From Bacteroidales bacterium (GTDB taxonomy: Bacteria > Bacteroidota > Bacteroidia > Bacteroidales > Muribaculaceae): 64,000 bases of DNA. The position numbers were made by a program, and so were the translations under genes. Below, one piece after another: positions 1 through 18,266 of this stretch. Location: NCBI GenBank assembly GCA_014800685.1, contig JAAVFQ010000021.1:1-64000 (forward strand). The letters run 5' to 3'. The first letter of the stretch is position 1; every line of letters starts with the position of its first letter. The notes beneath the pieces were generated by a model that saw only the letters and a program-made list of their open reading frames with translations, searched no databases and was not told the origin of the DNA.

Positions 1-174
1 TACATTCTTTATGTGCTTAAAGTCGCACACCATACCGTCTGCGTTTAGCCGTTTAGCCTTACAGTACACTGTTATTATCCAGTTGTGTCCGTGCAGCTGG
101 CTACAGGGGCTTTCGTAGCTTAATTGCAGCTTATGGCAGGCTGCAATTTCCAGTCTTTTAGATACGTAAAACAT
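1..174 (-). CDS. queD: QueD / 6-carboxy-tetrahydropterin synthase-like protein (partial, truncated by window edge)
   Basis: Own translation from ATG at 174: MFYVSKRLEIAACHKLQLSYESPCSQLHGHNWIITVYCKAKRLNADGMVCDFKHIKNV... contains the PTPS/QueD Zn-His and Cys signature (AACHKL..., CSQLHGH) and GMVCDF. Missing from the ORF track because it is short. Confidence 0.82.
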   Translation of the reverse strand, partial: MFYVSKRLEIAACHKLQLSYESPCSQLHGHNWIITVYCKAKRLNADGMVCDFKHIKNV

Positions 175-191
175 AATGCTGTATAAGTTAT

Positions 192-476
192 TTATACCCA
201 AACTATCGCATTATCCCGAATGAAATAATGCGCCTTATTGGGGCAGTTACCGTTAAGAATACTGGGCGATAATGTTACTTTTGTGCCACTGCTGATAAGC
301 TCCCAGCCGTGCTTATTGCCAAAGGGCGTTACGGACTGACAACCGCACCCACAGGCGCATAAGTGAACAGCTGTACCGAACTGGCGTGATACGTATAGCA
401 CGCCCTGCTTCATTTGTGCTTCCTGTGGAATGTAATCCACATATTCCACCCTGTGTAAATGTGTCAGCCGTTTCAT
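192..476 (-). CDS. DUF6527-like small protein with Cys-rich motif (HLCACGCG)
   Basis: 94 aa; VEYVDYIPQ...GVLYVSRQFGTAVHLCACGCG...LSPSILNGNCPNKAHYFIRDNAIVWV resembles DUF6527 proteins. Confidence 0.65.
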   Translation of the reverse strand: MKRLTHLHRVEYVDYIPQEAQMKQGVLYVSRQFGTAVHLCACGCGCQSVTPFGNKHGWELISSGTKVTLSPSILNGNCPNKAHYFIRDNAIVWV

Positions 477-1060
477 TATTCAATGCCTATAAATTTGTGC
501 CACTGCATACCCAGTCGCCATTCGGGGTGTTCCTGCACCAGTGCAATGCAGTGGGCGATGTTGTCTTTGTTGGGTTGCTCTCCGTCAAAGCAGGGCGAAA
601 GGTAGTAGTGTTCCGCGTGTTTGTGGGGAACAGGTATCGGGTCGCCAGCCTTTACCACATAGCGAAGCTCGTTTATGTGGTCGGGGGCTATCTTGGCAGT
701 CTTGGGGCTGCATACCACGTAATCCACACCAGCAGGCACAGGGAGCAGTCCGTTTGTTTCTATGCTCACGTAATAGCCAGCCTGCTTAAGTGCTTCCAGC
801 AGGTGTTCATCCAGCTGTAATGTAGGTTCGCCACCACACAGGCTTACGCTGGCACAGGCTTCTCCCACACGCTTGCACTCGGCTATAATTTCGTGTGCGT
901 CCATAAGCTGGTATCTGCTTTCGTGGTCGGTGTCGCAAAAGCTGCAATGCAGGTTACAGCCACTAAAGCGGATAAACACCTGTGGCGTGCCAACACGTGC
1001 GCCCTCGCCCTGTATGCTGTAGAAAATACGGTTAATTCGGTAGGTCTTTTCAGTATTCAT
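476..1060 (-). CDS. queE: 7-carboxy-7-deazaguanine synthase-like radical SAM protein
   Basis: NRIFYSIQGEGARVGTPQVFIRFSGCNLHCSFCDTDHES: QueE N-terminus with CX3CX2C cluster motif; SLCGGEPTLQ. Confidence 0.88.
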   Translation of the reverse strand: MNTEKTYRINRIFYSIQGEGARVGTPQVFIRFSGCNLHCSFCDTDHESRYQLMDAHEIIAECKRVGEACASVSLCGGEPTLQLDEHLLEALKQAGYYVSIETNGLLPVPAGVDYVVCSPKTAKIAPDHINELRYVVKAGDPIPVPHKHAEHYYLSPCFDGEQPNKDNIAHCIALVQEHPEWRLGMQWHKFIGIE

Positions 1061-1078
1061 ATTGTTGTTTGTTAAGTG

Positions 1079-1894
1079 TTACATATTTTCCCTGCACCAG
1101 CGTTGATACAGCACCCACTGGTCAAAGTTGTTTTGGGCTGCTGCCATTGTTACCAGCTTCTTGCCCTGTGGTGCTTTGGTCTTGCCCATTACGCCTGTGC
1201 GAGGGTCAAAGTGGTACACAAAGCCGCCCAAATTGCCTGCCAGCCACGCTGTGCTATCACAGCTGTAGAACCTGTGGCGATGTTGCAGCCATACACTAAT
1301 CGCTGTTAAGCCCAGTCCGTGTACCTTGCAGCCGTGTTCTGCTGCCACGTCCAAAAACCAGCCCAGCTGCGCGTATTTGTGCTGCTTAAACCAGCTTGTC
1401 GTTTTGGTAGCACCGCCCAGCGATAAGGCGGCATAAGGGTATTCTTTGCAAATGTCTATCCACGCCTGTTTGCCCCTACAGGTGTGCCAGCACGGTATCG
1501 GCTGCATACCTGTGCGCTGTTCCATACGCCTGCGCAATGCAAGTGCTTCGTCCACACTTGCCACCCAGTCAATATCCATTTCCACAAAGTTTTTAATGCC
1601 GTTAGCCAGTACCCAGTCGCAATACTCGTCCGTGTAGCGTTCCCAGTTTACGGCATACTTATCGTCCTGCATAAATGTGAAAGCTCCGCTATCTATTAGC
1701 AGGTTGCAGGCGTTGCTGTTTTGGATAATAGGGTATTTCTTATTCTTGCGTGCATAGTAGAAACTTTGCAGCAGGTTTATGCGCTTGTGGTCGTTGTACA
1801 ACCTGTCGGGCTGCTGGTAGTGCGTAAGCTCCACATCGGGGCTTAAGTGCATCATGCGTATGTAGTCAAACTCGCCAGCTAAATACAGTTCCAT
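1079..1894 (-). CDS. tRNA-guanine-transglycosylase-like / DpdA-like DNA deazaguanine transglycosylase
   Basis: 271 aa; LLIDSGAFTFMQ (TGT DSGGFQ-like), EMDIDWV, LGGATKT, KVHGLGLTAI, YSCDSTAWL, the pattern seen in TGT-fold phage DpdA proteins. Confidence 0.72.
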   Translation of the reverse strand: MELYLAGEFDYIRMMHLSPDVELTHYQQPDRLYNDHKRINLLQSFYYARKNKKYPIIQNSNACNLLIDSGAFTFMQDDKYAVNWERYTDEYCDWVLANGIKNFVEMDIDWVASVDEALALRRRMEQRTGMQPIPCWHTCRGKQAWIDICKEYPYAALSLGGATKTTSWFKQHKYAQLGWFLDVAAEHGCKVHGLGLTAISVWLQHRHRFYSCDSTAWLAGNLGGFVYHFDPRTGVMGKTKAPQGKKLVTMAAAQNNFDQWVLYQRWCRENM

Positions 1895-1903
1895 AGCGTT
1901 ATG

Positions 1904-2557
1904 TTATTTAACCTTTACACCTGTGTAACTTGCCACAGCAGCTTCTACCACTTGCCGTATTTCGTCCAGCTCCGCTTCCAGTTCATCGGGAACGCTTACC
2001 AGCACGTGCAGCCCTTTGGCTTTGTCCTTTTGCTCTGCATCGGTAAAGAAGCTGTCAATGTCCGTGTCGGTATTGTGCCAAATGTCCATACCCCATTCAG
2101 CAAGCAGGTTGTTATCCCACTTGTTTGCCAGCTCGTCAAATTCCCATTTACCAAAGCCCACGTTATCCTTTATCACAAATTCGGCTTTCTCGGCTTCGGT
2201 TAGGTCGGAAACCAGCTGCACCCTTACCAGTGGGCGTTTTTGCCACTTTTCCCAGTATTCCAGCAGCTCCTGCTGTTCAAAGCTGGTAAGGCGTTTGTAC
2301 TTTGTCTGCTGCTCCAGCTTTTGCACAATTTCCTGCTTACCCAGCTGCTGTATGATTAGCAAAGCGCGTGTGCGCATATTGCCACCATACACCACGTGCG
2401 TTTCAGCGTCTGCCACCACTGGGCGTATTGCCAGCATTTTAGGGAACACCAAAATGCTCTGCACCAACAGCTCCAGCTTGTCGGGTGTTATTTCTCGCGG
2501 ATTATCAGCATTTAGTACAATGTCTGTAACCAGCATATTTTTGTAGTCGTTAGCCAT
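1904..2557 (-). CDS. ParB-like nuclease domain protein
   Basis: MANDYKNMLVTDIVLNADNPREITPDKLELLVQSI...PVVADAETHVVYGGNMRTRALL; internal ATG at 2557 preferred over 2626. Confidence 0.7.
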   Translation of the reverse strand: MANDYKNMLVTDIVLNADNPREITPDKLELLVQSILVFPKMLAIRPVVADAETHVVYGGNMRTRALLIIQQLGKQEIVQKLEQQTKYKRLTSFEQQELLEYWEKWQKRPLVRVQLVSDLTEAEKAEFVIKDNVGFGKWEFDELANKWDNNLLAEWGMDIWHNTDTDIDSFFTDAEQKDKAKGLHVLVSVPDELEAELDEIRQVVEAAVASYTGVKVK

Positions 2558-2662
2558 ATTGCGTACATAAAATTTGCGTACAAAGTTAAGGCACAAAGCG
2601 TGTATATACATCACGCCTTGTGCCAAACTTTTGAAAGTAACACAAACTTTGTGGATTTTGTG

Positions 2663-11982: not shown

Positions 11983-14034
11983 TTATTCGGGTATTACCTG
12001 TAATTCGTTGTCTGTGCTAACAATAAGGTCAATGCGCTGGCTGTGCATAGGAAGCACCTCGTTTATGCTTTCTGCGTTGTCAATAAAGCACGGTGCATAA
12101 ATACCCCTGTGTCGGCATATAGCATTGATAATGTCAAGCCCAGCGTTAATTCGGTCGGCATTGTTAAGGTCGCTGTATGGTACGCCAGCCACCGTGCATT
12201 CGCACATAGGTTTCAGTGCGCCATTTATACGGTGGTCAAACATCGTAAAGGTTACGAAGCTAAACAGGGCATTTACTTTGGTTTCCAGTTCCTCAATGGT
12301 AAACTGTAGCAGCTGCTCGGCTGCAAAATCCTGCCCCTCCAGCTGGGTGAGCTGTATGTTAAGCTGCTGTTCCTGCTGCTCCAGCTCATTTATACGCTTT
12401 TGCTTTTTGGTTATGGTTTGCCCCACCTGTTGCAGCGCATTAAGTTTGTTGAGCTTTTCCTGTAGCTGCTGCTGGTCTGCCTGCAAGCTCTGCACGGCTT
12501 CCTGTGTATTATTTTCGCCAGCCTGTAAGGGCATACTATCCAGCTGTGCCTGTAGGCTGGGGATTGTTTCGTTTTTGAGTTGCTGGTAGGCTTTATCCTC
12601 TGCAAGTCTGCTTTCCACCGACTGCACGCCACTTAAGTAATCACGGAAACCGCTTACAGCAGCTTTGGCTTCCTTAAGTTTGGGCATATCCTGTTCCAGC
12701 TGCGACACTGCCTGCTGTGCCTGTACCAGCTGGCTATTGAGCTGTGTTTCACGCTGCTTTAGCTGCTGGGCTTCGCGTTCCATACTGTCCAGCTTGCGTG
12801 CTTTGTCGGCATTAAAGTTGGCTTCCAGCTTTGCTTTAAGCGCGTCCACATCTTCGGCTTCCAGCTGTCGCTTGCAGGTAGGACAAATAAACTGGTCGGG
12901 GTCAAACACAATGCTGCTTTCGTCCAGTTCCACCCACCGTGCCTTAAATGCTTCCTTTTCAGCCGCCAGCTGTTGCAGCTGGGCTTGTACGTTCTGCACG
13001 GTGCTGTTATTACGTGCCAGCGAATTTTCAGCATTTGTTAATGCTGTGCTGGCTGCTTCGTAGGCTCGCTGCTGCTCGTTTGCCAGCTGGCGAGCCTTGA
13101 TGTTGGCTTCATTGTATGCCTGCTGGTGTGCCATTCGCATACGCTCCAGCTCGTCCTGCTGTTTGGCTATCTGCTCGCGTACCTGTTTGCGTGCCGCCTG
13201 CTGTTTCGCCAGCTCCGCTTCCTGTGCCTTGCTGTGGTCGGCTATGGTTTCGGCTATAGCTTCGGCAATGCGCTTAAAGGCAGCTTCGGTAGCCTTGATG
13301 TCGCCCTCAACCTTTGCCCAGTCCACAGGCTCGGCTGGCGTAAGGCTGGCAATATCGTTTTGCTGCTCGCTTATGCGCACTGGTATGCGCTCCAGTTCGG
13401 CTTTTATTTCTTTCATTTGGTAGCTTAAGTGCTGGCGGAATTTTTCAATGTCCTGCTCGCCCATGATTTGCAGCAGGGCTTCAAATTCGCGTTTACCTTT
13501 GGCTACGCTGGCAGGGCTTACTTCGCCCACCATTTCCGTAAGTATGCTGCGCTGCTGGTCTGCTTTAAGCCCGACAAAGTAAGTGGGGCTGGTTATTGCC
13601 ATAAACAGGCTTTCGCTGCACAGGCTGTTAATGTAGTCCGTAAAGTCGCGCTGGGTGTACAGCTGTCCGTTTATGGTGTATGTGGTTGTGTGTCCAGTAA
13701 GCACCTTTTGAGCCACGCCACGAGGTTTTGTCCATTTTTCGGTGTATGTACGTGTAATGGCTGTTTCGTTGCCGTCCACCATAAGCACAGCTGTTACGCT
13801 ATGCTCCAGTTCGGGTATTACATTGCCGTCCTTATCCTTGCACTTAATGCCAAAGTCGGCTTTACCCTCCGTGTTTTTGCCGAATAAGCACCAGCGGAAT
13901 GCATCGGCAATGGTTGTTTTCCCTTTACGGTTTCTGCCGTAAATCTTTGTTACAGTGGGGCTGAAATCCACTACAAGCTCGCCCAGTACGCCCTTAAAAT
14001 TGCGTATGATTAGCTGTTTGAGTATTATTTCCAT
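11983..14034 (-). CDS. SbcC/Rad50-like SMC-family ATPase with Zn-hook
   Basis: IRNFKG...KIYGRNRKGKTTIADAFRWCLFG (Walker A), coiled coils around FICPTCKRQLEAED, C-terminal PCFIDNAESIN. Confidence 0.82.
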   Translation of the reverse strand: MEIILKQLIIRNFKGVLGELVVDFSPTVTKIYGRNRKGKTTIADAFRWCLFGKNTEGKADFGIKCKDKDGNVIPELEHSVTAVLMVDGNETAITRTYTEKWTKPRGVAQKVLTGHTTTYTINGQLYTQRDFTDYINSLCSESLFMAITSPTYFVGLKADQQRSILTEMVGEVSPASVAKGKREFEALLQIMGEQDIEKFRQHLSYQMKEIKAELERIPVRISEQQNDIASLTPAEPVDWAKVEGDIKATEAAFKRIAEAIAETIADHSKAQEAELAKQQAARKQVREQIAKQQDELERMRMAHQQAYNEANIKARQLANEQQRAYEAASTALTNAENSLARNNSTVQNVQAQLQQLAAEKEAFKARWVELDESSIVFDPDQFICPTCKRQLEAEDVDALKAKLEANFNADKARKLDSMEREAQQLKQRETQLNSQLVQAQQAVSQLEQDMPKLKEAKAAVSGFRDYLSGVQSVESRLAEDKAYQQLKNETIPSLQAQLDSMPLQAGENNTQEAVQSLQADQQQLQEKLNKLNALQQVGQTITKKQKRINELEQQEQQLNIQLTQLEGQDFAAEQLLQFTIEELETKVNALFSFVTFTMFDHRINGALKPMCECTVAGVPYSDLNNADRINAGLDIINAICRHRGIYAPCFIDNAESINEVLPMHSQRIDLIVSTDNELQVIPE

Positions 14035-16483: not shown

Positions 16484-16796
16484 AATAAACAGGGGAATAA
16501 AGGAGCGTTTCTATAAAGCTATTGTGGCACTGATAGAGCGCAAAGCCCTTAAGGGTCGGCAAACATATTGCCGCCTGTATGATATAGACAAGCGTAATTT
16601 TTATGCACAGGAAAAAGACCTACAGGAAGCAAAGCTAAAGTTATACTGGCTTGTGCCGCTGGTTACGGAATATGGTATTAGCGCACACTGGCTGCTTACT
16701 GGCACAGGCAGAATGTTTGAACCCATAGCACAGCGAAAGCAGCGAGAAAGTGCCTACGATAAAGAAACAGGGTTGCCCACTACTGGGGAACCGTAA
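16461..16796 (+). CDS. HTH-like/hypothetical protein downstream of the repressor
   Basis: LYDIDKRNFYAQEKDLQEAKLKLYWLVPLVTEYGISAHWLLTGTGRMF resembles a phage repressor N-terminal region. Confidence 0.6.
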   Translation: MPSPASIEINRGIKERFYKAIVALIERKALKGRQTYCRLYDIDKRNFYAQEKDLQEAKLKLYWLVPLVTEYGISAHWLLTGTGRMFEPIAQRKQRESAYDKETGLPTTGEP

Positions 16797-18045
16797 AGCC
16801 TACCAGCTCCAGCACCCTTTTATTTGCTGCGTCCTGCTGGCTGTAATCCCTATCAATGTAAATGTCCGTTACGCGCATTTGCTCGTCCACGTGGTTTAAT
16901 GCTTCGTGTATTGTAGCTTTATCCACAGCTGCCTTATTTCGTGCCAGTGTCGCCCACGTATGCCGTGCTGCATAAAACTCCAAATCATCAACCTTAACGC
17001 TGTCCATTGCGCCTATAACTTTCAAGCCGCGATTTATATTTGCGTTCATTGTGTGGTAGCTGTTATATCGCCTGTGAAAGTTAAACACTCTTTCGCCTGT
17101 CGGGTCTAAATACTTTTCCACAAGCGGACGCACGCACGGCTCAACCTTAATGCTTATTTTGGCTTCGTCAGCACGCCTGCTGCGTGTTTTGGTACGTTTG
17201 TAGGTTATACGCTCTCCGTCATATTCCACAGCATTATATAAATCTACGCTGTTCATACCTATAAGCCCAAAGGAAAGCAGGAACACATCGCGTGCAGTGG
17301 TTACTCTGCTATCCACCGTTCTGCCGTCAGGCACGCGCATAATGGCTTGCAGCTGCTCAACTGTAATGCTGCGTTTGCGTGTTAAAGGCTGTTTGGGTAC
17401 TTTGAACCGCTTGAAAGGGCTTAAGGGTATGCGAATAATACCTGCGTCCTCGTCATTGTATCGCTCCTTTGCCTTGTTGTGCAGTATGCGTACTGCACCC
17501 AAATAGGAGCTGGGGGCGCGTTCACCCTTAACCCTGTTTGGACGTGCTGGCTCGTTTACAATAAATGCGTGAAATTCCTCCAGCAGCTTAACTGTAATTT
17601 CGCTTATGTCCAAATGGTCGCGCTTAAGAAACCTTTTAAGGGCTACCAGTGCCGACCTGTAATAAAGTGCAGTGCCGACCCTGCCAGCAGCCTTTGTTTC
17701 CTCAACCACATCTTCGCCAAACCGTATAAAGTCCAGCCTAAATACTCCGTGCTGCTTTTCATAGCTGCGTATGTATGCGCACACCTCGTCCACTGTCATT
17801 ACCTGCGCCCTTACTGGTGGTATGGTAGCTGCTATTTGTTGGTACTGCTCAACCTCTTTTTTTAGCTGGTCGTTAATGGCTGCGTTTTTAATCTTTAGAC
17901 CGCGTGTAAGGTCTTTGGCAGTAACGAACACGTTTGTTGCCACGTGCCGCTTCTGCCTGTTGTGGGTAATTCTAATCTTTACATTGTAAGTGCCGTCCTC
18001 TTTTTTGTGGTGGGCGTACACTACAGCCTTAAATGTTGTTGCCAT
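16780..18045 (-). CDS. int: Tyrosine recombinase / phage integrase
   Basis: Arm-binding N-terminus; SAM-like core; C-terminal YAARHTWATLARNKAAVDKATIHEALNHVDEQMRVTDIYI. Confidence 0.92.
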   Translation of the reverse strand: MATTFKAVVYAHHKKEDGTYNVKIRITHNRQKRHVATNVFVTAKDLTRGLKIKNAAINDQLKKEVEQYQQIAATIPPVRAQVMTVDEVCAYIRSYEKQHGVFRLDFIRFGEDVVEETKAAGRVGTALYYRSALVALKRFLKRDHLDISEITVKLLEEFHAFIVNEPARPNRVKGERAPSSYLGAVRILHNKAKERYNDEDAGIIRIPLSPFKRFKVPKQPLTRKRSITVEQLQAIMRVPDGRTVDSRVTTARDVFLLSFGLIGMNSVDLYNAVEYDGERITYKRTKTRSRRADEAKISIKVEPCVRPLVEKYLDPTGERVFNFHRRYNSYHTMNANINRGLKVIGAMDSVKVDDLEFYAARHTWATLARNKAAVDKATIHEALNHVDEQMRVTDIYIDRDYSQQDAANKRVLELVGFTVPQ

Positions 18046-18193: not shown

Positions 18194-18194
18194 G

Positions 18195-18266
18195 TACTCC
18201 CGAAGGGAATCGAACCCTTATCAAAAGAACCGGAATCTTTCATTCTATCCATTGAACTACAGGAGC
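18195..18266 (-). tRNA. tRNA-Arg (anticodon CCG)
   Basis: GCTCCTGTAGTTCAATGGATAGAATGAAAGATTCCGGTTCTTTTGATAAGGGTTCGATTCCCTTCGGGAGTA folds into a full cloverleaf. Confidence 0.88.

What the first reader, a model, noticed from the sequence alone, without database searches (positions are those of the whole stretch)
1..1894. Phage-borne 7-deazaguanine DNA-modification cassette: queD - DUF6527 - queE - DpdA-like TGT
Seen directly: adjacent minus-strand genes encode a QueD-like protein (AACHKL...CSQLHGH...GMVCDF, absent from the supplied ORF track), a QueE-like radical-SAM protein (FSGCNLHCSFCD) and a 271-aa TGT-fold protein with DSGAF and CDSTAW blocks. Established: phage DpdA proteins with preQ0-pathway genes replace guanine in DNA with deazaguanines and block host restriction. 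Inference: this element modifies its own DNA. The size and divergence of the TGT-like protein in a Bacteroidales element may mark a distinct DpdA subfamily. QueC and FolE should lie just left of the window or be supplied by the host.
Basis: partly seen in the sequence, partly recalled or inferred. Interest (0 to 1): 0.85.

Follow-up and report, generated by a model that had tools for sequence, protein, structure and literature searches.

The report
QueC-less phage DNA-base-swapping gene cassette
A virus lodged in the chromosome of a gut Muribaculaceae bacterium carries genes that make a modified guanine and swap it into DNA, probably to hide from host defences, and it lacks one standard enzyme while its swapping enzyme has a rebuilt recognition loop, so it may install an unusual, carboxylated base.

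Summary
Window 1-1894, the left edge of the contig, holds a minus-strand queD (cut), DUF6527, queE and a 271-aa DpdA. The predicted DpdA fold matches the crystal structure of the DNA preQ0 insertase best (7UI4), and the protein is homologous to the tested phage 9g enzyme. It lies in a prophage integrated at tRNA-Arg in a Muribaculaceae genome.
Three sibling prophages complete the cassette: ParB-like, dpdA, queE, queD, folE, then terminase. QueC is absent from all four. DUF6527 is not part of the system: two siblings lack it, and only 1 of 83 viral DUF6527 loci has que/dpd genes.
The unexpected part is a rewritten DpdA loop. It corresponds to the base-specificity loop of tRNA-guanine transglycosylase: AIGGxxxxE becomes SLGGATKTTSW. 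Non-canonical loops occur in 19 of 21 QueC-less cassettes and 3 of 72 with QueC. The link recurs on the tree but is not significant after correction, and distant DpdAs break it.
Best reading: DNA 7-deazaguanine modification (about 0.9), with 7-carboxy-7-deazaguanine or a derivative inserted instead of preQ0 (about 0.5). The main rival is preQ0 made with host QueC.

The parts
1..174 (-). queD (6-carboxytetrahydropterin synthase), 5' 58 codons only; cut by the contig end (listed as ORF 1-201 with a TTG start)
   Evidence: PF01242 3e-15; full 117-aa orthologues in L002, L161, L162
192..476 (-). DUF6527 protein, 94 aa, inserted between queE and queD; judged a bystander
   Evidence: PF20137 8e-19; absent from siblings L161/L162, where queE and queD nearly touch; 1 of 83 viral DUF6527 loci has que/dpd genes
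476..1060 (-). queE (7-carboxy-7-deazaguanine synthase, radical SAM)
   Evidence: TIGR04508 2.5e-41, phrog_2076 1.8e-33
1079..1894 (-). dpdA, DNA-guanine transglycosylase, 271 aa; D68, H192 and D213 conserved
   Evidence: phrog_887 1.7e-35; 9g DpdA 3e-9; alignment A1; Foldseek top hit 7UI4
1391..1423 (-). variant base-pocket loop of DpdA (residues 158-168, SLGGATKTTSW) in place of the GGxxxxE loop
   Evidence: compared with TGT Leu231/Glu235 (PMC3660597) and the host TGT motif AIGGLAVGE
1904..2626 (-). ParB-like protein paired with DpdA (likely start ATG at 2611)
   Evidence: phrog_620 1.8e-9; a ParB-like gene directly upstream in 111 of 119 dpdA loci
16780..18045 (-). tyrosine integrase of the prophage
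   Evidence: PF13102 1.5e-9, PF17293 8.8e-7
18194..18266 (-). tRNA-Arg (CCG), likely attachment site; homology to the sibling phage contig ends at 18269

Best explanation
This is a temperate-phage cassette for replacing guanine in DNA with a 7-deazaguanine. FolE (seen in siblings), QueD and QueE turn GTP into 7-carboxy-7-deazaguanine (CDG). DpdA, helped by the ParB-like protein encoded just upstream, swaps that base for guanine in DNA, which should block restriction enzymes. The phage has no QueC, and the DpdA loop that reads the 7-substituent is rewritten (GGxxxxE to SLGGATKTTSW), so the base is most likely CDG or a close derivative and not preQ0. DUF6527 is a separate inserted gene. Shown here: gene content, homology, fold, loop change, absence of QueC. 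Inferred: DNA modification (about 0.9), CDG as the base (about 0.5), protection.
For: DpdA homology and fold. Complete cassette in L002, L161 and L162, all without QueC. Across 93 distinct cassettes with QueD, QueE and FolE, the non-canonical loop is in 19 of 21 without QueC and 3 of 72 with it (earlier set of 82, Fisher 8e-9). Residues that separate the two groups cluster in one loop: Glu in 60/65 canonical, Trp in 17/20 variants. In TGT the matching Glu235 and the Leu231/Ala232 peptide set base recognition (PMC3660597). Loci fetched only by a methyltransferase-like gene that replaces QueC all carry the variant loop when their DpdA is of the near clade. Muribaculaceae phages with QueC keep the canonical loop although their hosts have a chromosomal QueC too.
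Against: The tree-corrected test has only 7 independent contrasts: about 4.3 concordant, 0 opposed, 2.7 tied, median p 0.125; an earlier set gave 4:1:2, p 0.375. L082, L150 and L003 have variant loops with a QueC-like gene; L059 and L132 are QueC-less with the canonical loop. QueC-less cassettes with distant DpdAs (L212-L214, L216-L218) keep GG. The host supplies QueC. The loop's role is inferred from TGT, whose sequence is too distant to align fully. folE is not seen in the window, and the only folE in its assembly is the host's.
Confidence: 0.55

Rival explanations
1. Same cassette, but the phage relies on host QueC: phage FolE, QueD and QueE boost CDG, host QueC turns it into preQ0, and DpdA inserts preQ0.
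For: Host G000 has queC, queD, queE, folE and tgt. L059 and L132 lack QueC but keep the canonical loop. Host participation was proposed for other phages (PMC6884629).
Against: The DpdA base loop is rewritten and loses the Glu kept in QueC-bearing cassettes. Related phages in hosts with a chromosomal QueC still carry their own QueC.
Confidence: 0.33
2. DUF6527 takes the place of QueC and further processes CDG.
For: It lies inside the queC-less operon and its start overlaps the queE stop region in the window.
Against: Two sibling cassettes lack both QueC and DUF6527. Only 1 of 83 viral DUF6527 loci has que/dpd genes. In Bacteroidales chromosomes it mostly follows a ThiF or DUF6791-ThiF gene (three confirmed DUF6791-ThiF and two ThiF-JAB by Pfam, others similar by eye).
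Confidence: 0.04
3. The genes raise queuosine in host tRNA and do not modify DNA.
For: Phages with preQ0 genes but no DpdA were proposed to do this (PMC6884629).
Against: A DpdA of the DNA-inserting fold is present, with a ParB-like partner in 111 of 119 loci; the host already has its own TGT.
Confidence: 0.04
4. The cassette is decaying or inactive in this prophage.
For: A sister locus shows an in-frame DpdA-FolE deletion fusion (L297); QueC may simply have been lost.
Against: All visible frames are open, catalytic residues are kept, and the siblings retain the same core gene set at 73-94% protein identity.
Confidence: 0.04

Closest known systems
Phage DpdA/preQ0 cassettes (Enterobacteria phage 9g, CAjan; Hutinet et al. 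2019, PMC6884629)
   Same: Homologous DpdA with QueD, QueE and FolE in a phage; DpdA is essential for modification in CAjan and protects DNA.
   Different: No QueC or Gat-QueC; shorter DpdA without the C-terminal extension; ParB-like partner upstream; rewritten pocket loop.
Mycobacterium phage Bipper cassette (L030)
   Same: ParB-like, DpdA, QueD, QueE, FolE next to the terminase and no QueC; the 2019 authors noted it could carry CDG (PMC6884629).
   Different: DpdA only 29% identical, loop GKLLGNSQ; extra gp4 protein in the QueC position; different host phylum.
Bacterial DpdA, PDB 7UI4 (DNA preQ0 insertase)
   Same: Best structural match of the window protein (E 1.1e-4); DxGAF, GGMV, H-LG and DST motifs align.
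   Different: 413-436 aa against 271; 16% identity; keeps GG in the loop.
QueC-bearing Muribaculaceae phage cassettes (L294, L295, L296)
   Same: Same host family, same placement before terminase, about 37-42% DpdA identity.
   Different: Carry QueC and a GG loop (GGIVTKE in L294 and L295; GGLMTDG and GGVATGD in the tandem pair of L296).

Membership tests
Phage DpdA (DNA-guanine transglycosylase) | Sequence homology to an experimentally tested phage DpdA | tested here: met
   26.4% identity to 9g DpdA, E 3e-9; phrog_887; 22 of 59 relatives match NCBIfam DpdA NF041059, though the window protein itself does not
Phage DpdA (DNA-guanine transglycosylase) | TGT/DpdA barrel fold with catalytic Asp motifs | tested here: met
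   Model pLDDT 84; top PDB hit 7UI4; D68 and D213 invariant in A1
Phage DpdA (DNA-guanine transglycosylase) | Conserved His that DpdA2 lacks (position 196 in PMC6884629) | tested here: met
   H192 in the VHGLG motif, invariant in A1 including 9g; that it is the same His is inferred
Phage DpdA (DNA-guanine transglycosylase) | Inserts 7-deazaguanine into DNA | not testable with these tools
   Needs mass spectrometry or nanopore data
preQ0-type phage cassette (group 2 of PMC6884629) | Phage encodes FolE, QueD, QueE and QueC | tested here: not met
   QueC absent from the window siblings and the 41-kb contig; the other three present in siblings
preQ0-type phage cassette (group 2 of PMC6884629) | Canonical GGxxxxE pocket loop seen in QueC-bearing relatives | tested here: not met
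   SLGGATKTTSW in the window
DpdA2 (Vibrio phage nt-1 type) | Lacks the conserved His and is not found with 9g DpdA | tested here: not met
   His present; window DpdA matches 9g DpdA
DUF6527 as a member of deazaguanine cassettes | Recurs with que/dpd genes | tested here: not met
   1 of 83 viral loci, and that one is the sibling contig; absent in L161 and L162
DpdA3 / DpdA4 subfamilies (recalled from Cui et al. 2023) | Sequence placement in those subfamilies | not tested
   Paper not held

The most novel reading that the evidence does not exclude
QueC-less cassettes form a recurring class in which the DpdA pocket loop has been rebuilt (Glu to Trp, extra Ser-x-Ser/Gly-Gly) to insert CDG or CDG tailored by a slot enzyme: none in the window type, a methyltransferase-like protein in 26 IMG/VR loci, a gp4-like protein in Bipper relatives. 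Some of the resulting DNA bases would be undescribed, for example a methyl ester.
Probability: 0.4. Interest if true: 0.8.

Novelty: new variant of a known kind. Interest (0 to 1): 0.6.

Why it matters
It gives a sequence-level hint of which 7-deazaguanine a DpdA inserts, something now settled only by mass spectrometry, and it predicts which uncultured phages carry unusual DNA bases. It also adds a temperate Bacteroidota phage lineage to the deazaguanine-modifying viruses.

Tried and rejected
DUF6527 as a QueC substitute: rejected by the siblings and the co-occurrence count. Its model is confident (pLDDT 94.6), but no PDB fold matches (best E 0.63). QueC elsewhere on the viral contig: none. 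Rest of the prophage in the assembly: no terminase found. The idea that variant-loop DpdAs with QueC have a broken QueC was dropped, because a zinc-motif-less QueC clade is also common in canonical cassettes (19 of 72). Aligning DpdA to host TGT by profile failed outside the DSGxF motif. Cui et al. 2023 and the 2024 review could not be read; DpdL searches returned unrelated papers.

Full report
Observation. The window starts at base 1 of contig G000:C21. Reading right to left on the minus strand, the genes are a ParB-like protein (1904-2626), a TGT-like protein (1079-1894), QueE (476-1060), DUF6527 (192-476) and the first 58 codons of QueD (1-174). The TGT-like protein matches phrog_887 (1.7e-35) and phage 9g DpdA (26% identity, 3e-9). 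Its AlphaFold model (pLDDT 84) has PDB 7UI4, the DNA preQ0 insertase DpdA, as best match (E 1.1e-4, probability 1.0), and a profile of 12 DpdAs finds only that entry in the PDB by sequence, weakly (E 0.5).

Setting. Replication genes (SSB, DnaC-like, DnaD-like) follow to the right, then a tyrosine integrase (16780-18045) and tRNA-Arg (18194-18266). Homology to the sibling viral contig ends at 18269, so the tRNA is the likely attachment site and the rest is host chromosome. Sibling prophages with 93-94% identical DpdA are in two Muribaculaceae genomes. The remainder of the prophage is not in this assembly: no terminase was found, and the only folE is the host's.

The complete cassette. L002 (IMG/VR, 92% DpdA identity), L161 (94%) and L162 (93%) show ParB-like, dpdA, queE, queD and folE, then terminase. 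None has queC; the 41-kb IMG/VR contig has none either. The host has queC, queD and queE together on contig C1, folE on C15 and its own TGT.

DUF6527. In L161 and L162 the queE stop and the queD start are 1-3 bases apart, so DUF6527 is an insertion in the window and L002, or a deletion in the others. Of 83 viral DUF6527 loci (some fetched twice) only the L002 contig has que/dpd genes. In Bacteroidales chromosomes it follows DUF6791-ThiF or ThiF-JAB genes, the context of ubiquitin-like conjugation operons. I treat it as unrelated to base synthesis. A counter-defence role against such operons is possible but untested.

Relatives. A scan with 12 DpdAs returned at least 439 viral relatives. Most sit in ParB-like, dpdA, queC, queD, queE, folE cassettes. 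The ParB-like gene is directly upstream in 111 of 119 dpdA loci with enough sequence. From memory, bacterial dpd clusters pair DpdA with a ParB-like DpdB; I did not test that homology.

The loop. QueC-bearing cassettes have DpdA with Y-x-Y-V-A-I-G-G-I-V-T-K-E, which has the same spacing as the host TGT motif AIGGLAVGE. In TGT this loop includes Leu231/Ala232, whose peptide flips between guanine and preQ1, and Glu235, which stabilises either state (PMC3660597). The window and siblings have SLGGATKTTSW instead. In a comparison of 65 canonical and 20 variant proteins, separating columns cluster here: Glu in 60/65 against Trp in 17/20. The groups were themselves defined by the GG spacing, so part of this clustering is expected. 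Over 93 distinct cassettes with QueD, QueE and FolE, the loop is non-canonical in 19 of 21 without QueC and 3 of 72 with QueC (Fisher 8e-9 on an earlier set of 82). These counts are not independent. On a tree built without the loop columns, seven contrasts on well-supported branches give about 4.3 in the same direction, none opposed and 2.7 tied, median p 0.125 (an earlier set gave 4:1:2, p 0.375). The link therefore recurs but is not established.

An independent handle. A methyltransferase-like gene in the QueC position (L067, L090, L138) was used alone as a query. It fetched 26 loci, nearly all QueC-less deazaguanine cassettes, and every near-clade DpdA among them has the S-x-S-G...W loop. 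Six QueC-less loci with more distant DpdAs (L212, L213, L214, L216, L217, L218) keep GG, so the rule does not extend across the whole DpdA family.

Mechanism. Shown: gene content, homology, fold, loop change and absence of QueC. Established by others: FolE, QueD and QueE make CDG, and QueC converts CDG to preQ0 (PMC13329287); DpdA is needed for modification in CAjan, and the bases protect against restriction (PMC6884629). Inferred: this DpdA uses CDG or a derivative. The 2019 authors raised CDG for the QueC-less phage Bipper (PMC6884629). I recall that Cui et al. 2023 detected dCDG in phage DNA, but could not read that paper here. The main rival, preQ0 through host QueC, is alive. Against it, Muribaculaceae phages in hosts that also have a chromosomal QueC carry their own QueC with a GG loop.

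Verdict. A real DpdA-type DNA-modification cassette, in a QueC-less variant with a rebuilt recognition loop. It is a new variant of a known kind; DUF6527 should be dropped from the description.

Noticed in passing
L067:6740-7309, L090:1379-1948, L138:2216-2782, L193-L217: A roughly 190-aa methyltransferase-like protein (weak Methyltransf_23 match) takes the QueC position in 26 IMG/VR loci, nearly all deazaguanine cassettes; it could methylate CDG.
   Followed up: partly
L047:1765-2142, L218:2136-2522, L030:2047-2472: A 121-141 aa family with no clear Pfam match, seen here only in QueC-less cassettes: Bipper-cluster mycobacteriophages and two IMG/VR contigs.
   Followed up: partly
L004:6748-7182, L008:947-1192, L040, L069, L094, L107, L181: DUF6884 (YaaA-like) gene directly after dpdA in several cassettes, often before queC.
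   Followed up: no
L297:4946-5611: In-frame fusion of the DpdA N-terminal half to the FolE C-terminal half between ParB-like and terminase genes in a Muribaculaceae genome, a deletion remnant of a cassette.
   Followed up: no
L043, L118, L163, L168 and L296: Tandem pairs of divergent dpdA genes in one cassette.
   Followed up: no
L298-L308: Cellular DUF6527 in Bacteroidales follows DUF6791-ThiF or ThiF-JAB genes; in L298 a HamA gene is adjacent, suggesting a defence island. Phage copies could be counter-defence.
   Followed up: partly
QueC of L102, L092, L075, L100, L066 and others (19 cassettes): A phage QueC clade lacks the CxxCxxC zinc motif and the VPxRN motif yet sits in ordinary cassettes.
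   Followed up: partly
window 11983-14034: A 683-aa SMC/RecF-like AAA ATPase gene (PF13476) on the minus strand within the prophage.
   Followed up: no
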